Of a DNA stretch of 64,000 bases, positions 30,301 to 61,112 are shown in pieces. Both the position numbers and the translations under genes were made by a program. Below the pieces are notes generated by a model that did not search any database, was not told the origin of the DNA, and saw only the letters and a program-made list of their open reading frames with translations. This DNA is from Ypsolopha sequella (taxonomy: Eukaryota > Arthropoda > Insecta > Lepidoptera > Ypsolophidae). Numbering within the stretch: position 1 is the stretch's first letter; the number at the start of each line of letters is the position of its first letter. Location: positions 17,124,339 through 17,188,338 of the forward strand of contig OW204011.1 of the NCBI GenBank assembly GCA_934047225.1, read 5' to 3'.

Positions 30301-33300
30301 AAACAGTGTAATACTCGTAGTTCTTAAGGATGATAAATTCATATAATTTTCATAATAAAACAGTATAGTAGCAAATTTATGATGTTTTTTTATGATTTCT
30401 CAAAACTGCAATTTGCTAGCGTTGTTCGGACACACTATTCTGTATAAAACTGCGCGCATGGCGTGGTGCACCGTGTACCTATGAATTTTTAAACTGTGTG
30501 GTACCACTTTCCCTACAATACCTAAACAAATACCGCTCTGTGACGGTTTCTGCAATATATAAGAAGCATAACCAATATGCATAAACAACGAATACAAAAA
30601 AAAATTAAGAAATATTAAATGAACATTACAGAAATTATATACACTGGTGGACATAAAAATCGACTCAAGCATTGTTGTTCTACATTTAAGGAAATAACCT
30701 AATCATACAAACATAAACATATGAAATATATAACATTATCATTTTAAAGGTATAGGCCTCCACCTTTGATTAAATGCATTTTTGTCTTAAAGTATTTGCT
30801 ATACAGGCTGTATTTTTTTTTAAGTGATGAATTAATAAATATTGAAATAATCAAATAGCAAAAAATAAAAATAAAAACCTTCTTTCACAAAATCATTTAT
30901 TCATTAATTAAGTTTAACATTAGTACTTCGTGTTCCCCCCTCTAGCCCTTAAGTGTAGGTGCTTGCAGCCGGTTCTTCATTGACCTAATAAGTTTTTAAT
31001 TAATGAAATGAATTTCACGTCTTGTATAGCGAATACTTTTAAACCAAGCATTTATACCTGGTGTTGCGGAATGCGGGGAATATATAGATATAGGTATAAA
31101 CCTTATATCTGTTATGTAAGCGATATATAATTATGTTTTACCAGAAGTACCGTGTTCACATAAAGATGGAAGATGCCACAAAGGGAGAAAGCACTCACCG
31201 ATAGTTGCCTGGATGATGTCCTCTTGATTCTCGGGCGAACTGGTGATGAAAGCACTCCCAAAGCACAGATCAAGCACAGCACTTAATAAAGTCTCAAGCG
31301 TTCCTGGGGGGGCCCCCCAATTATAATAATAAATAAGAAAGAAGCGGAGGCGTCGGCGGCGGCGGTTGAATCTGATCAGTCTAAGCGACGCGGTGGTTGT
31401 AGCCAATCTGAAGAAGCGTCCGTTGCCTTTTAAACAGTTCGGCAATTTTCGTGAGCCTTCGGATGTTGTCGGGATATCGAACAACAACACTTTGCGGCGG
31501 CAGCAGGAACTAAAGGGTTTACGCATTCCTGCCCTAGATGGCGCTACCGTTATTTATGTGAACAGAAAAAAGGGCACAACCATACTCCCCGGCTTGGAAA
31601 TCCTTAGGATTTTCAAAGAAAAGCAAAAAATGAACAATAACGATATGAGCGAATAAAGCTTTGAATACAAACTTGAGAATTATGAAGGAAATAATTAAAT
31701 AAATAATATATATACATATATTGTAGCCTACATTGCCATATATTATAATAATAAATCGAATATAGGTGCATGCGAATACAACTGTGCCTTAATAACTAAT
31801 AAATGCGAAGAGAAAAAAAAATTATTGAGAAGGAAGGGGACACAATTTCACAACTGGACGTTTAAAGGTTCCAGTTGTAGTACGCACCAACGCGACACGC
31901 GCGATACCATCTTTCCCAGGGTATACCTGGTCAATAACACCTGTAGGCCAACGCAATGGTGGTGTATTGTCCTGATGAATAAGGACAAGCGTTCCCGGTT
32001 CAATTGGTACATCAGGCGTGTTCCATTTTTGTCTCAACTGAAGCGTGTGTAAGTAGTCTACGTGCCACCTTTTCCAATAACTTTGCACTAAACTATCTAA
32101 AAGCTTTTTCCTGTTATAAAGGCCAACCGAATCGTCCAGCTCATACGCAGGTAACGATTGCAATGGTGTTGTATTCAGAAAATGAGCGGGTGTCAGTATG
32201 GTGTGCGGCTGATCAGACAGCAAGCACAGCGGACGTGAATTTAAGAGGCATTCAATTTGAACCAGAACCGTCAGCAATTCTTCATAACACAGTAATTGCT
32301 GACCAATACAGCGATGTAAATGTGTTTTTATGCTTTTTATATTTCCCTCCCATATTCCACCATGGTGGGCTGCTCTCGATGGGATATTGCGCCACGTGAT
32401 CTTATGATTATTTAATTCTGCCTGAAATGCAGTAGACATGTCTTTCGAAGACAAAAATGTGTATAATTCGTTTAAGTGGCGTTTTGCGCCAATAAAATTC
32501 GTTCCATTGTCGGAATAGATGCAAGCGACTGGGCCTCGCCTAGATAGGAAACGTTTAAGAGCATCTAAAAACGTTTCTGAGGTTAAATCAGATGCAATTT
32601 CGATATGTATCGCCTTGGTAGTCAAACACACAAAAAGGCATATGTAAGCTTTCTGACTTTTAACACCCCGTTTACGTGTAAGCGTAATGTTTATAGGGCC
32701 TGCATAATCAATTCCCGTGTGAGTGAAAGCCTTAGCTTCTTGTACACGAGCAGGCGGAAGACTTGCCATCATAGGTGAAGGGTGAGAAGGAGCGCACTTG
32801 AAACAGAAATTACACTGGCGTATGCGTTTTCTAATAATATTTCGCGCGGATATGATCCAGTAGCGTTGTCTTAATAAAGACATGAGAAGATGTGAGCCGG
32901 TGTGACAATTGGAGCGATGATAATCATCAATTAATATATCAACCACGTGATCGCGGCGGGGAAGCAGTACAGGATGTCTATTTTCATAAGGAATGTCAGC
33001 GTTTGTCAATCGGCCACCAACGCGGAGCAATCCATTTTTATCTACAAATGGATTAAGTTTTCTTAAAGAGGGGGAAGGTAAGCCACCTTTTTTTATATTT
33101 TTAATTTCATCAGCGAAGTATTTGTTTTGTAAAGCGCGAAAAATTGCGATTTCAGCGGTTTCAATGTCGGACACTTGGATTGAAGGCGATCGAGGTATTT
33201 TATGTATAAAGCGGAGAATGTAAACAATAATGCGCAACAATTTTTTCCAAGTTGAGACACGAAGAGCAAGTTCAAGAAGCGGCGATGTATTATCATCGTT

Positions 33301-36300
33301 TGTTACAACGGTAAGAGTAACTGACGTTTTTATTTCAGGTATAGTACCTTCAGCGCGGGAGGATTCAAACGGTACAATTGGCCATTCAGCGATCGGAAGA
33401 CGTGCCCATGGTGGACCTTGCCACCAAATCGGGTGGTCAATTAATTGTGAGGGCAATAGTCCTCGCGATACGGCATCACTGGGGTTTTCTACCCCATCTA
33501 TGTGGAAGAAGCGGTCAGGAGCTAAAATCTCCTGTATTTTACTAACACGGTTAGCAACAAATATTTGCCACCGATGTGGAGATGAATGAATCCATGACAG
33601 GGCGATCATGGAATCAGAAAAAGCGTATATATCTTTTATGGGATAATTTTCATTAAATGCAATATGAACTTGTTTAACAAGCTTAGCAAGAAGTACCGCG
33701 GCACAGAGCTCAAGTTTAGCTAGTGTAATTACCTTTAGAGGTGCCACTTTGGATTTTGAACCTACCAACTGAACTGAAATGTCACGATTAGGATGAGTCA
33801 CGTGTAAATATATAACGCAACCATAAGCTTTCATGCTAGCGTCTCCGAATGCGAGTAAGTGTACAACACAGCCTGCCGCGATTCCTAAATGACGAGGTAT
33901 TCGTAGATAAGAAAGGAGCGGTAATTCCTTTTTAAATTCTACAAAGCGTTCAGTCACTGTTTCAGGGGGTTCTTGATCCCACTCCACTTTTGCTAGCCAA
34001 AGGTCTTGCAATAAAAGTTTTGCATATAGTATGACCGGCGCGACTAAACCTAGAAGGTCAAATAAGCGAGCGATGGTCGAGAGTATAGCACGTTTAGTGT
34101 TAGCTACCGACGGTGTTGATATAGTAAACGATAATGTGTCCGTAATTGGTAGCCACTTTAAACCCAAAACCTTTAATGTGTCAGTATCGTTAGTGAACTC
34201 AACCGATGCGCGATGCGAGTCCGGTAAATGAGCGAGAAGTTCCGGTGAATTGCTTGCCCATTTCACGAGATTAAAGCCACCGGCTTTAAATAACTTGATT
34301 AAATCATCAGCCAAATTCACAGCTTCCTCGGTCGACTGTACTGACATGGTTAAATCATCCATATAAAGTTCTTGAGTGGCAACCCTAGCCGCCGCAGGAA
34401 AGCGTTCACGTTCATCCTCTGCTAACTGGCGGATTGTTCTCATAGCCAAGAACGGACTGGAGCGAAGACCGAAAGCTACGGAGTTAAATTGAAAAATGCG
34501 AGTACGTTCAGTTTCATTAAAGCGGTATAATATTTTTTGATATTTACGATCATTCTCGGACAAAAATATTCTTAAATACATTTGTTGCACATCTGCGGTC
34601 ATCGCGATTTTAAAGTAACGAAATTTCAAAAGAAGTGCAAACAAATCTGCCTGTAAGTTAGGTCCGGTATGTAAAAGTTGGTTTAACGAAACACCAGTAT
34701 CAGTTTTAGCGCTTGCGTCCAAACAAATACGCGTTTTGGTCGTCGCTTTGTCAGGACGCACGACAGCATGATGCGGAATAAAGTTACCTTCATTTATAGA
34801 GGTGGGAGAATGCGGTATTTCAGTCAGGTAACCTTTTTCTATATAATCGGCGATGACGTCATTGTAAGCTTGACGTAATGCGGGTAGCGCGTTAAACTTG
34901 CGCTCTAATGCGGTAAATCGACGCTGAGCGTATGTAAAGGAGTGACCTAAAGACTTAGGATCTCCACTAAAGGGCAGTGAAACAGTATAGCGGCCACAAG
35001 AGCTTCTCGTAACTGTAGAGGCGTACAACTGTTCGCAGTCATTATCTTCCGGACTTACAAAATTTAATGCGGACACTTCCTCGAGCTCCCAGAATTTTTC
35101 AATGTTTTTATTTATTTCATCTGTTAAAGGACCGAAGGACCAGACTATATCTTTAGAGTTTATTTGAGGTATCTCCCCCATGACAATATAGCCAAGCGTT
35201 GTCTCGAGAGCGTACGGAGTATTCAAAGTATCAGCTGATGGAGCGGGAGACGGCGGGATCACCTTACCTCCTAGCAAAATGAATGCAAACATCTGAGCGC
35301 CCAGAATCACATCAATATCTCCGGGCGAACTCCAACCCTCATCAGCGAGCGGTAAGTTTTTAAAATAATCTATTACAGGTGCACAAACGACGCGCGTTGG
35401 TAACTGATCAGTAATATGATCGACTACTAACATTGTTAAGTTATATTGCGAGTCCGAAAAACGCGACTGAATTGTAATCATTACGTAGCCTTTAATAGGC
35501 GTGGAGATATTACTCACTGTCTTCAAAGATGAATTTATAAGCGGGTGAATTTCTAATTTTAATTTATTGCAACATGCGAGAGAAATTATATTATTTTGTG
35601 AGGCACTGTCAGCGAGACATCTAATAATAACAGGTTTCTCATTATTAGTAACGTATACTTGCGCGGTAGGCAAAATGATTGTTTTGTCTAACTGGTTGCG
35701 GGAATGTAACGTAAGCGGATTGCTACAAGAAGCGGTAAGCGAATTGCTACAAGAAGCGGTATCTACAAATTTAGGTGTATGTGTACCTATACCGGTATGC
35801 ATACATAAATGTTGTCGTTCTGACGTCGACGCGAGCGAGTGACCGACGGCGGCGGTGGCGGCCGTGGTTCTATTAGAGTCCTTATTCTCAGATCGCATTT
35901 CGTTATTAAAATGTTGCGTTTGATTATTAAAATGCAATAGCGAATGGTGCTTTCTATGACAATGTTTACAAGTATTAGTAGAACCACAATTAAAGGTAGT
36001 GTGTTTTGCACTAAAACAATTAATGCACATTTTCTTATCTTTAATGTAATTAAAGCGTTCTTTCACCGACAGTTTTTTAAATGCCGCGCACTCGTATAAG
36101 TGAGTGTGATGTAAGTTATTACAGAAAACACAAGCAGGTTTGAAAACCTCAGTTTCCGTAATAGCAAAGGTATGCGATAATTTCGGTGTGTAATTGCGAG
36201 ACCGAGCTTGAGAATTGGACCCTTGACTTTGGTTACTCGTCGACCGTACGGTCGGGGCAGTTCGTTCCAAAATTTTAATGCGATGTCGTACAAAACTCAC

Positions 36301-39300
36301 GAGCTCTTCACTGGAAGGTATTTCACTCTGATTCGATGCCTCGAATTTTTCTACTAATATGGAATCAAACTTTTTAAGAGCAAGATGCGTGAAAATGAAA
36401 TCATTAAGATCTTTAATTTCTAACTGTTTTAATGCGGCCCATGAAGAATGAATACGTTCAATAAAGTTACTTAGCTGATCGGGTGAATCAGAAACAGGTT
36501 TTATATCGAGTATATTGTTAAGGTACATAGATCCAAGCGCCCGCTTATCTTGATATTTCGTCACTAGCGCATTCCAAATGGTGGCATAGTTCGCTTCGTT
36601 AGGTACAATTCCTGCGAAAACGTTAAGAGCGGTTCCACTTAATTTGCCTACTAAATACTGAACGCGCTGAGCGTCGGTTAATTGCTTGTTCTCGTGTACA
36701 TTTGTTTTGAAGCATTGATGAAAAAGCGGCCATGATTCTGGATGACCAGAAAAACCTACCAATTTGAGTGGTTCAAGTCCGACAGTACAATTATTCGAAG
36801 CTTTATTTTGTGTCAAACGACGAGATTCCAGTAAACTTGAACGGGCATGTTGGATGAAAGAAAATAATGTTTCAAATGCGTTCCAATTATTGAAATTAAG
36901 CGCGCACTCAGGATCCTGTTCTAACAAGAATGCATTGTGTTGATCACATAAATCGTTAAATTGATTATATAAATTGTCGATATTCGACGAAGCGGCTAAA
37001 AATTCTTGTTTACTTCTAGTATCGATTTCAGACGGTACTAATTTCTTCGCGGTATTATATAAAGTATTAATAAGCGAAAATATTGCCTCCTTTTTAGCAA
37101 TGAGCATTCTTAATTTTGCGTCCGGCTTATCAGTAGTCGGCGCCATCTTGTATGCCTATGCGAGCTTCGGTTGGCGGCACGCGACCGTTACGGAGGAACA
37201 AAGGAATGCAGAAAATATCGAAATTAATCGCGAGTAATACGATCTAAGCGGGTGTTATTGAACAAGTATAATAATATAAGTATTCATAAATTGTAGATCA
37301 AGCGATTACCAAGATAAAAGTTATATTTGCGAGATTCAATGCGTATTATGTGGTATAAATTTATTAAATGCACAGTTGTAAACACGAATACATAAATTAT
37401 AAATAAATATTATGAAAGATGCTAACAAACAAAGGATGTTTGCTAGTAGCGAGGGGCTGGTTTTATCCGGTTCGAATGAACCAAAAATTATGGTGTTGCG
37501 GAATGCGGGGAATATATAGATATAGGTATAAACCTTATATCTGTTATGTAAGCGATATATAATTATGTTTTACCAGAAGTACCGTGTTCACATAAAGATG
37601 GAAGATGCCACAAAGGGAGAAAGCACTCACCGATAGTTGCCTGGATGATGTCCTCTTGATTCTCGGGCGAACTGGTGATGAAAGCACTCCCAAAGCACAG
37701 ATCAAGCACAGCACTTAATAAAGTCTCAAGCGTTCCTGGGGGGGCCCCCCAATTATAATAATAAATAAGAAAGAAGCGGAGGCGTCGGCGGCGGCGGTTG
37801 AATCTGATCAGTCTAAGCGACGCGGTGGTTGTAGCCAATCTGAAGAAGCGTCCGTTGCCTTTTAAACAGTTCGGCAATTTTCGTGAGCCTTCGGATGTTG
37901 TCGGGATATCGAACAACAACACTTTGCGGCGGCAGCAGGAACTAAAGGGTTTACGCATTCCTGCCCTAGATGGCGCTACCGTTATTTATGTGAACAGAAA
38001 AAAGGGCACAACCAATACCTTTAAAATGATATATATATTTCATATGTTTATGTTTGTATGATTGGGTTATTCCCTTGAATGTAGGACAACAATGCTTGAG
38101 TCGATTTTTATGTCCACCAGTGTATTTTTGACGATTTATCAAGGAGATGAAAATTACAGAGTGACCAAACGTCCGCCGACGGAATCGCAATGTAGACGTT
38201 ACTCTTCCGCCGTGAGGCGGATTTTTAAAATGTATTTAATGGAATCCGCTGTAAAGCCGGCCGTTTAGTCAACAATAAATTATAAGTCAATGTTAAAGCC
38301 GTATTTAATAATAATTTCGATTTATTTATGGATTCTCAGTGATTTCGGACTTCGGCTTGTGTTTCATTTGAGATCTAACAGAGCTCGGCCTTCCTCTTCG
38401 CTGGTGAAAGAAAACCCACCTGAACCTCGGTAGGGCAGCTGCAGTCATCAGGCTGTCCCAGCAGCTTGCAGCACTCGACCACATCAGAGCTGAGGATCAT
38501 GGTCGGCAGCGCCATGTTCAGGTCGAGACTGGAGGCCGAATAGTCCGTAAGGACGAGGTTCCAGCGGTACTCGCGACGGACGAGCTTCTCTTTTACGGCC
38601 TAGGGAGGAAATATATATAGGTTAGCAGTTTTTTAAGGCGATTACCGTCGCCAAATTAGCAGCTCAATGTTTGTCTGTATGAATATCGACGGAAACGACA
38701 TTGAAATAACGTTCAAATCAGTGCACAATGCGTGGTGGCTGTTACGACTAATATAACGCTGCGTCCTTGAAAGGGCAAAATAGGAGAAAATAATCTTTTC
38801 ACATGAGCGTCATTGTTAGATTGAATAATTCTATGTTATATTTATAGCTACCATGTTTATCTATTTATCAAAGCATAAATGAGTTAAATCACCTAAGCCG
38901 CTTAGGACCAGTAGGAAATTCAAGCCAAAAAACACCATTCAGTTGAAACAATTTTTCATATAGAAGTTTTGGTGGTACGAAAAAGAAAATTGTTGCATAT
39001 GTTGTCCTAGAGTTGATAATCCATAATACAATTCAATATTTTTGGTTTGGCCATAAAAGAGGAGTAGGCTTTAGAAAGTACCCATTTGGCGATATTAAGG
39101 GCCTTAATGTTCCGTACCCGAAGAGCAAAACGGAGCCCTATTAATATCACACTGCTGTCCGTCTGTCCGTCGGTCTGTCTGTTTCACGTGAATGTAAGAA
39201 CTTAGATATAGACTGACCCGTCGGTAAGTGTCAGTGACGAATGTGTTGTCCCCCACTATGACGTAGAAGCCGGGCTCGGGCCGCATGGTCTGCAGCGCCC

Positions 39301-43330: not shown

Positions 43331-43371
43331 TACGAAAATTGTTTAATACCTCTTAAGTATAAAAAGGGTGC

Positions 43372-43783
43372 TGTAATCGCGGGATTACAGAACTGCAGAG
43401 CTGATGATAAAGGGAAAATGGATGGGTTGACACGAGAGAAGAAAAAGATTGTGGGATATAGAATGTGGGTGCGCTGACCTGGTTCGAATGTTTCGATGGG
43501 CCGGCAAATCCGCCGCGTTTCTTCTCCTCTCGTTGGGCTGATTGAGTTGACGGTGATGAGCAGTGATGAGCTGGATGTCTTGGAGTAATGTACACAGCAC
43601 TAGTATGAACACAACACTGTAAATACGCGAGATTGTTTGTATTGGCGGCGCGAACGTGTACACATGTGTCGTTCTGGACGATTCGGACGGAACAGAGCGA
43701 GCGCCGGCGCGCGAGTCGAGTTGGCGCCAGGCGCTGTGTTGCGAAATTACTCATCCGAATGCGTCACGCTTGTGGCGTGAACA
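43372..43783 (-). repeat. BEL-2 3' LTR
   Basis: 412 bp, TG...CA. Overlaps the last 37 bp of the pol frame. The adjoining internal sequence on the sense strand is C-rich rather than purine-rich. Confidence 0.92.
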
Positions 43784-46700
43784 TCCTGGGGGGGCCGGGG
43801 CTGCGACTCCTCTTGAGCTGAATCCAACGGCAGCCTGGCTATCTTGAACACAGGTCGTCGCAGATTTCCATGAGCTGTGTCCAGATCCACAACTCGGATC
43901 ACTCCATCCTTGCCAGGTATCGTGCGGAGAATTCTCCCCAGCTTCCATTGGAGCGGAGGCAAGTCATCCTCTTTGATGAGGACCAGTTCACCCACTTGAG
44001 GAGGGGAAGAAGGGGAGAGCCATTTGGAGCGGGTTTGCAGGGTATGGAGGTAGGATCTGGACCAGAGAGTCCAAAAGCGCTGAGAGAGCGCTTGAATGAG
44101 TTGAAACCGTTTAAGAGCAGATATGGGTCTGTCGTCAAAAGACTGCTCAGGTAGAGCGGTGAGCGGACGACCAATAATGAAATGTCCGGCCGTGAGGGGT
44201 TCAAAGTCCGTAGGGTCGGATGAAATTGGGCAGAGGGGTCTTGAGTTGAGTACAGCCTCAATTCGAGCCAAAAGGGTAGAGAATTCCTCAAAAGTGAGGT
44301 GCTGTTCACCTATCACGCGATAAAGTAGTTGCTTGGTGGATTTTACGTTTATTTCGTGCAGTGCGCCGAACCAAGGCCCTTTAGGCGGGTTTAATAACCA
44401 AGTTATGTGCTGATTCGCGAGTTTGTGAGTGATTGCATCATTGTTTGACCTGAGGAAGTTCTGAACTTCAATGAGTTGATTCCTAGCACCTACATAGTTT
44501 GTGCCGCAGTCTGAACGAATGAGAACCGGAGTACCGCGACGTGAGATAAAACGTTGCAATGCCGCAAAGAACGCTTCCGTTGAGAGTGCAGAGACTGGTT
44601 CCAAATGAACCGCCTTTGTTGCGAGGCAAACGAAAATACAAAAGTACGCTTTAATGAGTTTCGCGTTCCGCAACGTGCTGGATTTAACGAAGAAGTGGCC
44701 AGCAAAGTCCGTCGTGACGTGACTAAAAACTGGCTGAGGAGTAACTCTGTCTGCTGGGAGATCAGCCATGAGCGGAGCCTTAGGCTGAGCGCGGCACCGG
44801 AAACATCTAATACATTTAAACACGCGGTGTCTAATAATACGACGAGCGGACAGAATCCAGTACTGCTGGCGTAATATGGCGTGTAATGTGTCAGCTCCAG
44901 GGTGGCAGTGTATTGTGTGATAGTGATCTATAATGAGATCTACGAGCGGACTGGAGCTGGGTAGAATGAGTGGGTGTTGAGCGTCATACCTAATTGACGC
45001 GTGAGAGAGACGACCACCGACTCTCAAGAGGCCGTCCTTTATGAAGGGCGAGAGACGCTGGAGCCGAACGGGACAAACTTTATCAGTCTGGATACGATTA
45101 ATGTCTTCAGCAAACTCATTGTGCTGAACAGAGCGGACCCAGTGCAACAGAGCGTCCCTGCGTTCACTAGCTGTCAACGGACCAGAGCGCCGTGCATCTG
45201 GGCTGTGCCGACAATTGAATATGAACCTTTTAATACAAGCCGTCACTCCGACGAGCTTATCAAGTGAGCTGTAGCGAGTTAGCAAGTCCAGATCGATATC
45301 TGGGACTGCTATGTGTGCTGGTACCTTTTTGGGCTTAAGGCCTGGGAGAGCATGATGGCCTAGAGCGGGTGGCATCTTGGGCCAAGTGCAGGTAGGTTCT
45401 TTGAGCCAACTGGGTGACCACCAAAGGTCATGAAGTGAGAGAGATTGGGCAGACATGCCTCTGCTTGCACAGTCAGCAGGGTTGAGATTCGTGGGCACAT
45501 GCCTCCACGTATGGCTAGTTGAAATAGCTGTGATCTTAGCCACTCGATTGGCCTCGAAAGTCTGTAATCGGTGAGGTGGGGTATTGAGCCATGCCAACAC
45601 TATTGTGCTATCTGACCAGCATGTGTGTGTTTGAATGTCTATATGAGCTGACAATTGGGCTGACACTCGAGTCATGAGCTGAGATAAAAGAGTCGCGGCT
45701 GACAACTCCAATTTCGGGATTGAGAGACGAGTCTTTATGGGTGCGACCTTGGACTTGCCAATGATTAGGTGTACATTGACATGTCCAGTGATATTGCGCT
45801 CATGAAGGTAGATAGCGGCACCAAAGCCAGCCTCTGATGCGTCCGCGAACCCGTGAAGTGAGTAAGTAGACGTGGGCTTGTACTTACAAATGTGCCGAGG
45901 TAAACGGAGGTTTGAGAGCTGAGGAAGATCCTCTGAGATGTGTTGCCACTCTGTGTGGACTTCTTCAGAGATAGGCTCATCCCATCCTATTTTCAGAAGC
46001 CAAAGCTTCTGGAGAAGAATCTTTGCGCGGAAGATGACTGGAGTGACCCAGCCATTGGGGTCATAGAGAGACGCTACTGTACTGAGAATGGAGCGCTTTG
46101 TGACTTGAGCATGAGTGGGCAGAGAAATGCGATAAGTGAACTCATCAGTTTGAGGAATCCACTGTATTCCCAGAACCTTAATGGAATTAGAGTCGGGACT
46201 GAAGTCAAAGTCCTTGGGCATGTCGCACTGGTCATCTGGGAACCGTTCAAGGAGCTGAGGCGAGTTGGAGGTCCATTTACTGAGCTGAAAGCCACCTAGG
46301 GCGAGTAACTCGATCAGTTCGCTTTGGAGCGACTGAGCAGATTCTACAGAATCTGCACCTGAGAGAATGTCGTCCACAAATATTGATTTGCGGAGGACCT
46401 GAGCAGCGTGGGGGTAGCGATGACCTTCGTCATCAGCCAATTGGAGTAAAGTGCGGATGGCATGGTATGGGCTGGACCTTAATCCATATGTGACGGTATT
46501 AAGGGCATACGTGAGCAGGGGCTGGTCGGGTGAAGACCGCCAGAGAATGAGTTGAAAACGTCTTTGCTCTGGGTGAATGAGTATATTTCGGAACATCATT
46601 CGGATGTCTGTGCTGAAAACTTGTGAGTGGATCCTGAAGGACATGATAATGTCAACAATATCTTGCTGAAGAGCCGGACCTGTATGAAGACAATCATTTA

Positions 46701-47775
46701 GATTGACGCCGTTTGAGCTCTTACAACTTCCGTCAAACACACAGCGTAACTTTTCTGATCCTGGCTTGAATATGCCATGATGTGGGATATAGAAATGGGA
46801 TTTATGAGCAAAGGTATTGGGGTGACACGGCGACATATGGCCCAATTTTATGTAATCTGACATGAATTCTACGTATTTCGAGCGGAAGGGCGGGTTCGCT
46901 TGCAACTTCTTCTCTAAGTTGAGAAACCTGCGCAGTGCAATAGCGTGAGTGGAACCTAATGTCGGTGCGTTGTGCAGAAAGGGCAGTGTAACCACATATT
47001 GACCTGATGGTTCACGAGTAGTTGTGGTGCGGAAAATGTCCTCACACTGATCCTCTAATGGGCTGGTATGCTTGTAGGTTTGGGGTTCCTCGGATTCCCA
47101 AAACCTCTCAAGACTTTTGTGAATGTCATGAGTGGAATGCTCTGAGTCCGTGTGAGAGCCGACAATGTGAACTGAGTTGACCTGATTCGTGGGTGAAGTA
47201 TGTAAACTTTCGAAAGGTCCAATCAATGTAAAATCAAATATCGTGCCGAAGGCTATAGGCTTGCCAGGGCCGAGCGAAACCTTGGTTCCGTCTAACACTT
47301 GACCAAGAACGTCAGATCCTAGTATTAGATCAACCGGAGCTGGTGTGTGATATTCTCGATCAGCAAGAGGAATCGGCGGGTGACCTGTTAACTGAGCGAG
47401 ATCTGGAACCTTTTCCAACGGTAGGTACCCAGTTACGTTCTTCAATATATGGGCTGTGGCCGTGATCATAGGTGTGTCACGGTGAGTAGGTCGGCATACA
47501 ATTGTAATTGATGCCTTTGAGTCTTGTGTGTGCTGATTTCCAACTCCTGCGATTTTTAGAGATGTATGTTTTAATGGTAAATTTAAAATTGTGGCCATGC
47601 GCTGAGAACAAAGAGTCAGCATACTTCCACAGTCTAACAGGGCTCGTGCTGAGTGAAATTGACCATTTACGTCTGCTATTTTAAGTGAGACGGTTGGCAA
47701 CAAAATTGGCGTGTTGGTGACGTTCACTACACGTTGTGCGGAGTTACAGTAATTTTCTGTTGGAGTTGAAGTCAT
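43747..47775 (-). CDS. BEL-2 Pol (protease, RT, RNase H, integrase)
   Basis: 1342 codons from the first Met, though the open frame continues upstream without a stop as far as the TGA at 47887-47889. Domains: DUF1758 retropepsin with LLDCGS (Asp 48), reverse transcriptase with FVDD at 466-469, RNase H-like GFADASEAGFGAAIYLH, integrase zinc finger (DHYHTIHCHPGADT), integrase core with RSDCGTNYVGA (Asp 1089) and LHEINVKS, and a DUF5641 tail. The C-terminus HATSVTHSDE is encoded by LTR sequence. No break inside pol. Confidence 0.94.
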   Translation of the reverse strand: MTSTPTENYCNSAQRVVNVTNTPILLPTVSLKIADVNGQFHSARALLDCGSMLTLCSQRMATILNLPLKHTSLKIAGVGNQHTQDSKASITIVCRPTHRDTPMITATAHILKNVTGYLPLEKVPDLAQLTGHPPIPLADREYHTPAPVDLILGSDVLGQVLDGTKVSLGPGKPIAFGTIFDFTLIGPFESLHTSPTNQVNSVHIVGSHTDSEHSTHDIHKSLERFWESEEPQTYKHTSPLEDQCEDIFRTTTTREPSGQYVVTLPFLHNAPTLGSTHAIALRRFLNLEKKLQANPPFRSKYVEFMSDYIKLGHMSPCHPNTFAHKSHFYIPHHGIFKPGSEKLRCVFDGSCKSSNGVNLNDCLHTGPALQQDIVDIIMSFRIHSQVFSTDIRMMFRNILIHPEQRRFQLILWRSSPDQPLLTYALNTVTYGLRSSPYHAIRTLLQLADDEGHRYPHAAQVLRKSIFVDDILSGADSVESAQSLQSELIELLALGGFQLSKWTSNSPQLLERFPDDQCDMPKDFDFSPDSNSIKVLGIQWIPQTDEFTYRISLPTHAQVTKRSILSTVASLYDPNGWVTPVIFRAKILLQKLWLLKIGWDEPISEEVHTEWQHISEDLPQLSNLRLPRHICKYKPTSTYSLHGFADASEAGFGAAIYLHERNITGHVNVHLIIGKSKVAPIKTRLSIPKLELSAATLLSQLMTRVSAQLSAHIDIQTHTCWSDSTIVLAWLNTPPHRLQTFEANRVAKITAISTSHTWRHVPTNLNPADCASRGMSAQSLSLHDLWWSPSWLKEPTCTWPKMPPALGHHALPGLKPKKVPAHIAVPDIDLDLLTRYSSLDKLVGVTACIKRFIFNCRHSPDARRSGPLTASERRDALLHWVRSVQHNEFAEDINRIQTDKVCPVRLQRLSPFIKDGLLRVGGRLSHASIRYDAQHPLILPSSSPLVDLIIDHYHTIHCHPGADTLHAILRQQYWILSARRIIRHRVFKCIRCFRCRAQPKAPLMADLPADRVTPQPVFSHVTTDFAGHFFVKSSTLRNAKLIKAYFCIFVCLATKAVHLEPVSALSTEAFFAALQRFISRRGTPVLIRSDCGTNYVGARNQLIEVQNFLRSNNDAITHKLANQHITWLLNPPKGPWFGALHEINVKSTKQLLYRVIGEQHLTFEEFSTLLARIEAVLNSRPLCPISSDPTDFEPLTAGHFIIGRPLTALPEQSFDDRPISALKRFQLIQALSQRFWTLWSRSYLHTLQTRSKWLSPSSPPQVGELVLIKEDDLPPLQWKLGRILRTIPGKDGVIRVVDLDTAHGNLRRPVFKIARLPLDSAQEESQPRPPQDVHATSVTHSDE

Positions 47776-47878
47776 TGAGTGACAATGAGCTGAGTGTGTA
47801 TGTGATGAGTGAATGTGTGATGAGTGTGCTGAGTGTGCTGAGTGCTGGTCGTCCTCGCCTTCATAGTGCTCTGTTATT

Positions 47879-47904
47879 GTAGGTAGTCACTGTTGACTAC
47901 CTAC
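47879..47904 (-). promoter_or_regulatory. perfect hairpin containing the gag stop codon (TGA CTA context)
   Basis: On the sense strand GTAGGTAGTCA-ACAG-TGACTACCTAC forms an 11-bp perfect stem with a 4-nt loop. The TGA that ends gag is the first triplet of the 3' arm and is followed by CTA, the UGA-CUA context known to favour stop-codon readthrough. Downstream the frame stays open into pol. Confidence 0.7.
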
Positions 47905-49506
47905 CCGAGACCTACTTGGCGATCGCGATTGAGTGGGCGAGTTGGGATGGGACGTATATGCCTGTGTAGCATGCGCCGAATGGTATTGAGGCTCATGCGC
48001 TGAGCGCTGTCTGGGCTGCTCACGTAGAGACGGAGGCAGCAAATGAGCAGATGAGCGTGTCGGAGACATGGCCCCATGGCGATGCAGTGAAGTATGGTGG
48101 TCAGACCGCCCACACTCCTTGCATGCACGTGTAGACCTGCACTCGTTCTCATAATGAGGACCCAAACAGCGTCGGCACCGGTTGCGTGAGTTCACAAAAT
48201 CCCACCGACCTTGAATCGGCTGGTTGTTGAACTCTGGGCAGGCGATGAGTTTGTGTCCCCTATTCCTGCAGTATGGGCATGGCATACTACCAGTAGGGGA
48301 AGAAGGTTGAGCCGAATAATTCTGTCGGCGAGTGGGTGATGGGGATGATCGGGCCGAATAAACTGGCTGACGAGCGGATGATGAGGACGGTTGGGCCGAG
48401 TAGGTTAGGGCGTCACCGAATGCCAAGAACGGCCTATGTGGAGCAGGTTGAGGAGAGCGATATTCTTGCCGGCTCCTAAGCGGAGCTATGGGGCGGAATT
48501 CTCGAGTAGCCGTATAAGTCTGACGGGAACGTCGAGTGGGCTGAACTAGCTGATTGAGCTGAGCGAGCCTTTCTGACGGGCCGAGCCGTGCTGAAGAAGG
48601 AGCCTCCTGTGACGCAAGGGACGATGACTCATTCTCCTTGCAGCGTGCGTGCTCTTCCAAAAACTCAATGAGGTTCTTGAGCGTGGGCAGAGTTGCACGA
48701 GATCCGTACTTCCGCTCGAAAAGAGTGCGGAGCTCGCCTTGTAGTTTTCGCACTACCATGGACACGAAAACATAGTCAGAATCTTTCATGGGCAGATCCA
48801 GATTGCGCAGAGCGCTTTGCGCTGAGATAAGCGGAATTAAGAACGATGTGCGGATATCCGAGCGCATGTGGATGTGCGGAAGGTTCATGATGATGTCCAC
48901 AAACCGGTCAATGAGTACACGACGATTGTCGTAACGCTTGGTTAGAATTTCCATGGCTATGGGATAATTCTCGTTGGTAGGGTAGAGGTGTTTCACCATA
49001 TCATGTGCCTCACCCTTTAGGGCGCCTAACAAGTAATGCAGTTTGACAGCATCCGAGACTGTAGCCATCTCACTGACGAGGCTCCTAAAAACGGCAATAA
49101 ATGAGGGCCATTCTTCAACGTTCGAATGAAACTCCGGTATGGGTATTTTTGGTAGAACACCAACGGGTGTACCTGAGCTGATGGGTTGCGTCTTGTCCGG
49201 AAGAGCTGATTTTACTTTTAAATTTTCGAATGCCACTAGTATAGCATCATAATTGCTAAGTGCCGACTGAAAATTTTTTGTGTAGGTTGCCTCAGTTTCG
49301 TCGGACAAATCCTCATCGTCAAGGATCTCATAATATACGCTCTCTAACTTAGTTTTAACGCTTTGTATGTTTGCGTAACGAGCGGTGAAGTCCGCCACAG
49401 AATAAGTTTTTCTGTCGCCTGCCTCGACCGCCGCACCGATCTCCTTTAACAGAGCTATCGCCTTTACGGCCTCACGAAACATCGCGGCTTGTGATTTCGA
49501 AGGCAT
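47887..49506 (-). CDS. BEL-2 Gag
   Basis: 539 codons. Contains a DUF1759 region (about residues 120-290, with IPIPEFHSNVEEWPSFIAVF), a serine/proline/arginine-rich linker, and a zinc-binding region (CPYCRNRGHKLIAC, then CRRCLGPHYENEC and CKECGRSDHH at about 415-480). It ends SRVGSQQ at the TGA in the hairpin. Position and frame relative to pol suggest the two were, or are, expressed as one product by readthrough. Confidence 0.92.
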   Translation of the reverse strand: MPSKSQAAMFREAVKAIALLKEIGAAVEAGDRKTYSVADFTARYANIQSVKTKLESVYYEILDDEDLSDETEATYTKNFQSALSNYDAILVAFENLKVKSALPDKTQPISSGTPVGVLPKIPIPEFHSNVEEWPSFIAVFRSLVSEMATVSDAVKLHYLLGALKGEAHDMVKHLYPTNENYPIAMEILTKRYDNRRVLIDRFVDIIMNLPHIHMRSDIRTSFLIPLISAQSALRNLDLPMKDSDYVFVSMVVRKLQGELRTLFERKYGSRATLPTLKNLIEFLEEHARCKENESSSLASQEAPSSARLGPSERLAQLNQLVQPTRRSRQTYTATREFRPIAPLRSRQEYRSPQPAPHRPFLAFGDALTYSAQPSSSSARQPVYSARSSPSPTRRQNYSAQPSSPTGSMPCPYCRNRGHKLIACPEFNNQPIQGRWDFVNSRNRCRRCLGPHYENECRSTRACKECGRSDHHTSLHRHGAMSPTRSSAHLLPPSLREQPRQRSAHEPQYHSAHATQAYTSHPNSPTQSRSPSRSRVGSQQ

Positions 49507-50761: not shown

Positions 50762-51173
50762 TGTAATCGCGGGATTACAGAACTGCAGAGCTGATGATAA
50801 AGGGAAAATGGATGGGTTGACACGAGAGAAGAAAAAGATTGTGGGATATAGAATGTGGGTGCGCTGACCTGGTTCGAATGTTTCGATGGGCCGGCAAATC
50901 CGCCGCGTTTCTTCTCCTCTCGTTGGGCTGATTGAGTTGACGGTGATGAGCAGTGATGAGCTGGATGTCTTGGAGTAATGTACACAGCACTAGTATGAAC
51001 ACAACACTGTAAATACGCGAGATTGTTTGTATTGGCGGCGCGAACGTGTACACATGTGTCGTTCTGGACGATTCGGACGGAACAGAGCGAGCGCCGGCGC
51101 GCGAGTCGAGTTGGCGCCAGGCGCTGTGTTGCGAAATTACTCATCCGAATGCGTCACGCTTGTGGCGTGAACA
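50762..51173 (-). repeat. BEL-2 5' LTR
   Basis: 412 bp, same length as the 3' copy and no difference noticed by eye, indicating a recent insertion. Confidence 0.92.
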
Positions 51174-51329
51174 GGTGCTAACAGGAAAACTACAACAATT
51201 TAAAAAAGTTTAAACAAATGAGAAATATAAAAAAAGTTTAATAAATAAAAAAACTATTTTATTAAAATACAATATGGGTATCAAAAATAAATAAATTAAA
51301 AAAATATGTTATTAAAATACAAGAGTATT

Positions 51330-57837: not shown

Positions 57838-58665
57838 AATTATTAAAAATAAATCGTTAAAATAATCGTCTTTTCACCATAAGTCATGTTTTTTTTACTG
57901 TCATCGATCTACATACTTAACAAAAATCGTGACTCTTCCTCATTGTGAGTCGGACTCGCGTACAAAGGGTTTCATCCCACCACACAATGCTGGTACGGAA
58001 CCCTAAAAACATGGTAAATTACAATAATATTGATGACACAGCCTCTGAGCCACCTTTGTCAATGGTCTGACCGTGTCCCCGGTCGGTCACTCTCTGGTTT
58101 ATTCGTCCAAGGCTTGGACGAATAAACCAGGTCCAAGGTCACTCTTCGTAAGTTTGCGCACATTTCTGATTTTAGGTCACAACTTCAGTGGCTCTCAATT
58201 CGCCTTGGGCGTGACGCCCACATTCTCTCTCTTCTTTATTCTGTACTGTTCAATCCTTCAACTCTATCTTAAAGATTGCTTTAAATTCCTGCACTCCACC
58301 CATGACGACCGTACTCTACATCTCACAGTACAAATTTTTACGGTAATTCTTTGCTTTTAAAGCTGTCATATTGTGGAATAACTTGGCTTTCTCCCTCGTT
58401 GCCTGTCTTCAAAAGATATCTTAAGGATATTTTTCTTTCTTCGTGAATATTTGTTAAATCCATCTACTTCTGCCACTAATATTTATTTACTTTTGGTTTA
58501 CGTATTATATTAATTTTATTTTTGTTATATATTAGTGTATATATTTATTATATTCTAAGTATTTGTATGTACAATGTTATACTTGTGTATTTATTTTAGG
58601 TATTTGCTATCCATTTAAGTATTATTATTTATTTTGTGCACCACCTTCGCGTTATTTTTTCCAAC
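57838..58665. other. intergenic; repeat fragment and a perfect palindrome
   Basis: 57948-58012 is a fragment of the common repeat (GAGTCGGACTCGCGTAC ... TACGGAACCCTAAAAACATG). A perfect palindrome lies at 58094-58130. Nothing else supported. The frame 58073-58360 is not recognised. Confidence 0.5.
58094..58130. repeat. 37-bp perfect palindrome
   Basis: CTGGTTTATTCGTCCAAG, one G, then the exact reverse complement CTTGGACGAATAAACCAG. 18-bp arms with a 1-nt centre. Confidence 0.9.
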
Positions 58666-60849: not shown

Positions 60850-61112
60850 AGGATTGCATGCACATAGGAGTGCAGTGAAATAGTGCATTTAGAAAATGCA
60901 GCTTTAGTGCACCTAGGCATTCAGTGAGGTACTGCATTTAGGAAATGCAGTTTTAGTGCATCTAGGGTTTCAGTGAGATACTGCATTTAGGAAATGCAGT
61001 TTTAGTGCATCTAGGGTTTCAGTGAGATACTGCATTTAGGAAATGCAGTTTTAGTGCATCTAGGGTTTCAGTGAGATACTGCATTTAGGAAATGCAGTTT
61101 TAGTGCATCTAG
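60850..61112. repeat. 49-bp tandem repeat, about five units
   Basis: Unit spacing is exactly 49 bp for the last three units (CAGTGAGATACTGCATTTAG then GAAATGCAGTTTTAGTGCAT). Each unit contains the small inverted repeat CTGCATTT-AGG-AAATGCAG. Confidence 0.85.

What the first reader, a model, noticed from the sequence alone, without database searches (positions are those of the whole stretch)
47879..47904. gag-pol boundary of BEL-2 is a single TGA inside a perfect hairpin with a leaky CTA context
gag and pol are in the same frame. The only interruption is TGA followed by CTA, and it lies in the 3' arm of an exact 11-bp stem with a 4-nt loop. The 37 codons between the TGA and the first pol Met are open. 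Most BEL/Pao elements encode one continuous polyprotein, so a programmed readthrough element would be an unusual way to set the Gag:Pol ratio. UGA-CUA is a known readthrough context. The hairpin role is inference.
Basis: partly seen in the sequence, partly recalled or inferred. Interest (0 to 1): 0.75.

Follow-up and report, generated by a model that had tools for sequence, protein, structure and literature searches.

The report
In-frame stop between moth retrotransposon genes
A very abundant jumping element, probably of a moth or butterfly, keeps one leaky stop signal (TGA followed by CTA) between its shell-protein and enzyme genes, so ribosomes probably read past it now and then to make a little enzyme; the eye-catching hairpin around the stop is only partly conserved and is probably not the key.

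Summary
On the minus strand of a young, complete BEL/Pao element (LTRs 412 nt, 100% identical, 5-bp target duplication), gag ends at TGA 47889-47887 and pol follows in the same frame after 37 open codons. TGA-CTA begins the 3' arm of a perfect 11-bp stem with a 4-nt loop. Sister copies support a working stop: the host genome has 793 near-matches to the junction, and 100 of 100 listed carry TGA although the pattern left that triplet free. Of 40 copies picked by gag or pol similarity, 39 read TGACTA; the other lost the junction by deletion. Gag frames close there in 84 of 85 scored copies and pol frames open just after it in 34 of 34. Linker lengths differ only by whole codons. Six of 14 Gag homologues (source organisms unnamed) end at the homologous place, and split gag/pol marks one clade whose named members are Lepidoptera. 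The hairpin fares worse: 17 of 39 junctions have an uncompensated mismatch opposite the A of TGA. Best reading: context-driven UGA-CUA readthrough, as in fission-yeast Tj1, with a dispensable hairpin. No expression data were available.

The parts
50762..51173 (-). 5' LTR of the element (BEL-2), 412 nt; flanked by target duplication GGTGC (51174-51178)
   Evidence: 412 nt identical to the other LTR
43372..43783 (-). 3' LTR, 412 nt; flanked by target duplication GGTGC (43367-43371); the pol stop lies inside it
47887..49506 (-). gag ORF, 539 aa, DUF1759 region and Cys/His motifs (motif reading mine), C-terminus RSPSRSRVGSQQ
47887..47889 (-). TGA stop codon of gag, in frame with pol
   Evidence: TGA in 100 of 100 listed sister sites of 793, 39 of 40 copies picked by gag or pol
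47884..47886 (-). CTA codon directly after the stop (UGA-CUA readthrough context)
47879..47904 (-). perfect 11-bp inverted repeat with ACAG loop; TGA is the start of its 3' arm; the outer 8 bp are unchanged in all 39 intact junctions picked by gag or pol
47850..47924 (-). 75-nt stretch predicted to fold as one long irregular hairpin (z -6.55)
47776..47886 (-). 37-codon linker, in frame with gag and pol; Ser-Ala-His repeats; length varies by whole codons between copies
43747..47775 (-). pol ORF from its first ATG, 1342 aa: Peptidase_A17, integrase zinc finger, rve, DUF5641 by Pfam; protease and RT by alignment to relatives
47623..47634 (-). Asp-Cys-Gly-Ser, taken as the protease active-site motif of pol
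   Evidence: position; DCG/DSG motif of Pao-like proteases in PMC554778
47862..47864 (-). out-of-frame ATG, the first ATG after the gag stop; its frame ends in an ATGA overlap at the pol ATG

Best explanation
The element expresses Pol by occasional readthrough of the gag UGA. Most ribosomes stop at UGA and release Gag. A minority insert an amino acid at UGA, helped by the following CUA and perhaps by the CAA-CA(G/A) codons before it. They continue through the Ser/His linker into protease, RT and integrase, giving a Gag-Pol fusion in small amounts. This is the gammaretrovirus layout (stop between nucleocapsid and protease), probably reached separately in one BEL/Pao clade of Lepidoptera. Shown here: the stop, its position, its constancy in the copies read, the kept frame, and the clade distribution of split gag and pol. 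Inferred: that readthrough happens, at what rate, that the short context rather than the hairpin drives it, and that relatives' stops are of the same kind.
For: TGA in 100 of 100 listed of 793 genomic junction sites, triplet left free. TGACTA in 19 of 20 copies picked by gag similarity (20 of 85 rows, chosen by me from the 39 best, the one odd row included) and 20 of 20 picked by pol similarity (first 20 of 34 rows). Gag open frame 516-548 aa in 84 of 85 copies scored (of 5111 candidates); pol open frame 1373-1385 codons in 34 of 34 scored (of 9149 candidates), none running into gag. 61 of 70 copies (all picked by the exact 27-nt core) have no other in-frame stop within 900 nt on either side. 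Variants shared by at least 3 of 68 copies fall on third codon positions in gag (60 of 101) and pol (24 of 33), a sign that both frames were under protein selection while copies were made. The distance from TGA to the pol ATG is 90, 105, 114, 120, 123 or 135 nt, divisible by 3 in 19 of 19 measurable rows, window included; four linker indel types in 6 of 68 copies are also multiples of 3, whereas all 5 frame-breaking indels lie outside the linker, each in one copy. Gag homologues P0002-P0006 and P0014 (6 of 14; Logan or ENA sources, organism not named) end at the homologous place, P0004 one residue longer. RT tree: the split group is one 14-row clade at 100/100, with one fused member, P0025; its named members are Lepidoptera. 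UGA-CUA alone gives 1.5% readthrough in human cells (PMC4132726, passages). Fission-yeast Tj1, Tosmo1-3 and Tcry1 conserve GAA-TGA-CT at the same boundary, and the Tj1 stop is reported essential for transposition (PMC10085805, passages).
Against: No RNA, protein or ribosome data. The sister copies are a recent burst and its subfamilies, so constancy partly reflects youth; only the best-scoring or exact copies were read. In the linker only 2 of 5 shared variants are at third positions, so protein selection on the linker itself is not shown. Linker indels lie in tandem repeats of codon-sized units, which bias them to multiples of 3. For relatives outside this genome only proteins could be read, so their stop codon, following codon and frame relation are unknown. 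Of the other 8 Gag homologues, P0007, P0009, P0010 and P0011 end close by, P0008 and P0013 run on about 25 and 80 residues, and P0012 and P0015 (gene models) diverge before the end. One fused relative (P0025, a partial gene model) and one fused deletion copy in this genome (L098) exist. The similar Candida Tca2 gag-UGA-pol junction showed no readthrough in S. cerevisiae (PMC2194720, abstract and passages).
Confidence: 0.8

Rival explanations
1. Programmed readthrough that depends on the stop-containing hairpin: the structure around UGA slows or disturbs termination.
For: 75 nt fold at z -6.55. In 68 copies no variant shared by 3 or more copies falls between -48 and +40 around the TGA, though -12 to +14 was fixed by the way copies were picked and rarer variants occur at -26, -25, +20 and +32. 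The outer 8 bp are unchanged in all 39 intact junctions picked by gag or pol.
Against: 17 of these 39 break the pair at the A of TGA without compensation. The CUC/GAG helix of the longer fold varies in 4 of 20 rows (codons at -21 and -18). Relatives' Gag ends imply altered or shifted 5' arms (VGGQQ, RGSQQ, EGSKQQ, VGGPQ). No marked structure is left 3' of the ribosome. A tested Drosophila stimulator, dfr, is a stem-loop 3' of the stop, and adding 3-9 nt after position +9 lowers its effect (PMC13170385, passages).
Confidence: 0.15
2. Termination and reinitiation: pol is translated from its own ATG at 47775 after ribosomes finish gag, perhaps through the small out-of-frame ORF that starts 25 nt after the stop and ends in an ATGA overlap at the pol ATG.
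For: The ATGA overlap exists and the pol ATG is present in 18 of 19 sister junctions (the 19th, L091, has other sequence there).
Against: The pol ATG has U at -3 and is preceded by an out-of-frame ATG with A at -3. In 7 of 13 split-clade relatives the predicted pol protein begins at the Met just after the protease Asp, and in 2 more at a later Met, so a conserved upstream pol Met is not seen (start choice by gene callers is uncertain). The linker keeps the gag frame, which reinitiation would not need.
Confidence: 0.08
3. The TGA is bypassed at RNA level: by a short in-frame splice around it, or by ADAR editing of UGA to UGI (read as UGG) because the A sits paired in the stem.
For: AG-GTAGTC and AACAG-AGC flank the stop 30 nt apart (my reading); the A of TGA is paired in the window copy.
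Against: 30 nt is far too short for a normal insect intron (recalled). UGA has a 5' G, a poor ADAR context (recalled), and 17 of 39 copies unpair that A.
Confidence: 0.04
4. The stop is a disabling mutation carried by copies that move with enzymes from a helper lacking it.
For: One copy with a continuous frame exists (L098).
Against: No sense codon among the 100 listed of 793 sites nor among 40 copies picked by gag or pol; L098 is a deletion of the whole junction. Pol shows third-position bias in shared variants. Six Gag homologues stop at the same place. Not every one of the 793 sites was read.
Confidence: 0.03

Closest known systems
Gammaretrovirus gag-UAG-pol (murine leukaemia virus)
   Same: gag and pol in one frame, one stop between them, readthrough makes Gag-Pol (PMC4178896 and PMC5778647, abstracts in the search listing)
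   Different: UAG rather than UGA-CUA; downstream pseudoknot (recalled; general rule in PMC3835772, listing abstract), while here no marked downstream fold is found (pseudoknots not modelled); different retroelement family
Fission-yeast Ty3-type elements Tj1, Tosmo1-3, Tcry1
   Same: in-frame TGA followed by CTA or CTG at gag/pol, conserved within a clade whose relatives Tf1 and Tf2 are single-ORF (PMC10085805, passages)
   Different: Ty3 chromovirus with GAA before TGA; here BEL/Pao with CAA-CA(G/A) before TGA; a separate origin is inferred from the different family
BEL/Pao elements with one continuous or two overlapping genes (ICTV Belpaoviridae profile, PMC8742986, whole text)
   Same: LTRs, gag and pol, pol domain types
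   Different: an in-frame stop between gag and pol is not among the layouts that profile lists; BEL-type Achilles, for one, has no intervening stop (PMC4580426, passages)
Candida Tca2 gag-UGA-pol
   Same: single UGA between gag and pol (PMC2194720, abstract and passages)
   Different: has a potential downstream pseudoknot; its junction gave no readthrough in S. cerevisiae reporters
Kamikaze (Bombyx mori, Pao-like)
   Same: protease motif DCG as here (PMC554778, passage)
   Different: its gag/pol layout could not be read (original paper not held); it may belong to this clade

Membership tests
BEL/Pao LTR retrotransposon | LTRs and short target duplication | tested here: met
   412-nt identical LTRs, GGTGC duplication
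BEL/Pao LTR retrotransposon | Pao-type peptidase A17, DUF1759 gag, DUF5641, integrase | tested here: met
   RT groups with other A17-bearing proteins
Programmed stop-codon readthrough | gag and pol in one frame with a single stop | tested here: met
Programmed stop-codon readthrough | stop kept in sister copies and frame kept beyond it | tested here: met
   (samples as stated, not all copies)
Programmed stop-codon readthrough | stop kept in related elements outside this genome | tested here: inconclusive
   6 of 14 Gag homologues end at the homologous place, but codon and frame cannot be read from proteins
Programmed stop-codon readthrough | known permissive context (UGA-CUA) | tested here: met
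   context from PMC4132726
Programmed stop-codon readthrough | measured readthrough product | not testable with these tools
   no expression data
Structure-stimulated readthrough (MLV type) | stable structure or pseudoknot a few nt 3' of the stop | tested here: inconclusive
   nested folds z -0.34 to -1.28; pseudoknots not modelled
Structure-stimulated readthrough (MLV type) | stem conserved with compensatory changes | tested here: not met
   17 of 39 with an uncompensated mismatch, no compensatory pair seen; the outer 8 bp do not vary and so test nothing

The most novel reading that the evidence does not exclude
A BEL/Pao clade of Lepidoptera evolved, once, a clade-wide recoded gag stop in which the UGA is itself part of an RNA hairpin: a stop-containing stem that tunes recoding (by folding behind or ahead of the ribosome, or by exposing the A to editing), unlike the known downstream stimulators. 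The 8-bp core that survives in every junction read would be the working part.
Probability: 0.1. Interest if true: 0.75.

Novelty: new variant of a known kind. Interest (0 to 1): 0.5.

Why it matters
Most BEL/Pao relatives seen here look like one continuous polyprotein and must set the Gag:Pol ratio some other way. A clade that fixed an in-frame stop and still left about 800 junction copies in one genome (793) is a natural comparison for why some retroelements need recoding, and a candidate source of a short UGA-CUA readthrough context in insects. It adds a further retroelement lineage to those with a gag stop, such as gammaretroviruses and fission-yeast Ty3 elements.

Tried and rejected
Rejected: a stop unique to this copy; a sense-codon helper family (none in the 100 listed of 793 sites or in 40 copies picked by gag or pol); a simple downstream stem (pseudoknots not modelled); a frameshift (gag and pol share a frame); a known Rfam element (only EBv-sisRNA-1 at 17.5 bits against a threshold of 58, E 0.29). 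Compensatory changes in the stem: none found. The apparent variant-free island (-48 to +40) is suggestive only: the copies were chosen by a 27-nt core, are young, and the sister subfamilies vary in the codons at -21, -18, -9 and -3.

Led nowhere: relatives' DNA in viral contigs and genome contigs, no relative confirmed; a sister-family pattern in the host genome (0 hits); host-genome searches with P0013, P0031 and P0036, never answered, so other split lineages in this genome were not examined; literature on BEL/Pao in-frame gag stops, none found. The Kamikaze/Yamato paper is not held, so prior notice of the stop there cannot be excluded. Rows dropped: L048 and L054 from the variant counts (upstream sequence unrelated); L055 missed by the junction regex because of a variant at +20; L091 has no pol side; 7 of 122 proteins, P0020 among them, lacked enough RT for the tree.

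Full report
What is there. On the minus strand, 51173-43372 is a complete BEL/Pao element: 412-nt LTRs that are 100% identical and a GGTGC target duplication. Gag (539 aa, DUF1759) ends in TGA at 47889-47887. Pol (Peptidase_A17, integrase zinc finger, rve, DUF5641) begins at ATG 47775 in the same frame, after 37 open codons. The stop is followed by CTA. TGA forms the first three bases of the 3' arm of an 11-bp perfect stem with an ACAG loop. Such repeats are rare by chance (mean 0.5 per 64 kb in 12 simulations), though the window has 5. The 75-nt surround folds unusually well (z -6.55). Downstream of the region a ribosome would cover, no notable nested fold is found.

Sister copies. The host genome (866.8 Mb, 151 contigs, unnamed) holds 793 sites within 3 mismatches of the junction pattern, with 0 for the reversed control. 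The pattern left the stop triplet free, and 100 of 100 listed sites have TGA. To avoid choosing copies by the junction, I used gag protein P0010: 85 matches scored of 5111 candidates, 84 with a frame of 516-548 aa and one of 1285. I read 20 of those junctions, all from the 39 best rows: 19 have TGACTA, and the 1285-aa copy (L098) has lost the junction by an in-frame deletion. With pol protein P0028, 34 matches were scored of 9149 candidates; 34 of 34 have a frame of 1373-1385 codons, i.e. it opens just after the gag stop. The first 20 junctions read are all TGACTA. Together, 39 of 40.

Frame and selection. In 70 copies picked by the exact junction core, 61 have no other stop within 900 nt on either side. 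Variants shared by three or more of 68 copies favour third codon positions in gag (60 of 101) and pol (24 of 33), but not in the linker (2 of 5). From TGA to the pol ATG the distance is 90-135 nt in six sizes, all multiples of three in 19 of 19 measurable rows. Four linker indel types, in 6 of 68 copies, are also multiples of three; the 5 frame-breaking indels lie elsewhere, each in one copy. The linker repeats have codon-sized units, so this is support, not proof, that the linker is translated in the gag frame.

Hairpin. Among 39 intact junctions picked by gag or pol, 17 (14 of 19 by gag, 3 of 20 by pol) have G for T in the 5' arm opposite the A of TGA; no row compensates. The predicted stem then has the 8-bp outer core, a G-A mismatch and two inner pairs, and the energy of the longer fold rises from -31.3 to -26.2 kcal/mol, or to between -24.4 and -22.9 where the CUC/GAG helix also varies. 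The last gag codon varies silently (CAG/CAA), and the codons at -21 and -18 vary in 4 of 20 rows. The outer 8 bp never vary in these 39, but neither do most nearby bases, so the test has little power. Relatives' Gag ends (VGGQQ, RGSQQ, EGSKQQ, VGGPQ) show that the protein over the 5' arm changes or shifts. I judge the hairpin probably incidental or at most auxiliary.

Relatives. The protein search with Gag found 14 homologues; three are named, all Lepidoptera (Arctia, Choristoneura, Bicyclus). P0002-P0006 and P0014, whose organisms are not named, end at the homologous place (P0004 one residue longer); P0007, P0009, P0010 and P0011 end within about 15 residues of the RSP-like motif; P0008 and P0013 run on further; P0012 and P0015 diverge before the end. 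Only proteins 0.55-1.75 times the query length are candidates, so fused ones were invisible there. The pol search (333 found, best 120 listed, lengths up to about 2400 aa) could show them. Of the 14 nearest (P0016-P0029), 4 start at most 94 residues before the protease Asp, 9 start just after it, and one, P0025, a partial NCBI gene model, carries gag. P0025 lacks most of the stop-flanking stretch, as if a gene model had skipped it (inference). In an RT tree of 115 of 122 rows, the window element, 12 split relatives and P0025 form one clade at 100/100; named members are Lepidoptera (Euphydryas, Choristoneura, Arctia, Scirpophaga). The next group (P0031, P0032, P0036, P0040, P0047) also starts near the protease, with weak joint support (100/56). 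I labelled 90 rows fused by the length before the protease, including the neighbouring BEL-1 of this window (1774-aa single ORF); 12 rows, these five among them, start short. Their DNA could not be read, so stop identity and frame are unknown.

Mechanism. Readthrough of UGA-CUA needs no special structure: in human cells UGA-CUA alone gave 1.5% (PMC4132726, passages), and fission-yeast Tj1-group elements conserve TGA-CT at gag/pol, with the Tj1 stop reported essential (PMC10085805, passages). Reinitiation is less likely: the pol ATG has a poor -3 base and follows an out-of-frame ATG with A at -3. Tca2 warns that a gag UGA can look right and still not be read through in a reporter (PMC2194720, abstract and passages).

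Novelty. The ICTV profile lists one continuous or two overlapping genes for this family (PMC8742986, whole text). My searches of the held library found no report of an in-frame gag stop in BEL/Pao. Kamikaze, with the same DCG protease motif (PMC554778, passage), may be a member whose original description I could not read. Verdict: a new variant of a known kind; real, kept in the copies read, and moderately interesting.

Noticed in passing
31059-38014 (-): A second BEL/Pao element (BEL-1) with 524-nt identical LTRs and one continuous 1774-aa gag-pol ORF; a single-ORF contrast in the same window.
   Followed up: partly
47776-47886 (-): The linker encodes Ser-Ala-His/Ser-Ser-His repeats that expand and contract by whole codons between copies; similar SAH/SAQ motifs occur in Gag and just before the protease of some relatives.
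   Followed up: partly
47864-47862 and 47775-47772 (-): The first ATG after the gag stop is out of frame and its ORF ends in an ATGA overlap with the pol ATG.
   Followed up: partly
L098 (G000:C18:1893416-1893866): One sister copy has gag and pol fused by an in-frame deletion that removes the stop region.
   Followed up: partly
43747-43783 (-): The pol ORF ends 37 nt inside the 3' LTR.
   Followed up: no
58094-58130: A 17-bp perfect inverted repeat with a 3-nt loop.
   Followed up: no
60931-61098: Four copies of a 21-nt hairpin sequence spaced 49 nt apart, in a GC-rich, strongly skewed end of the window.
   Followed up: no
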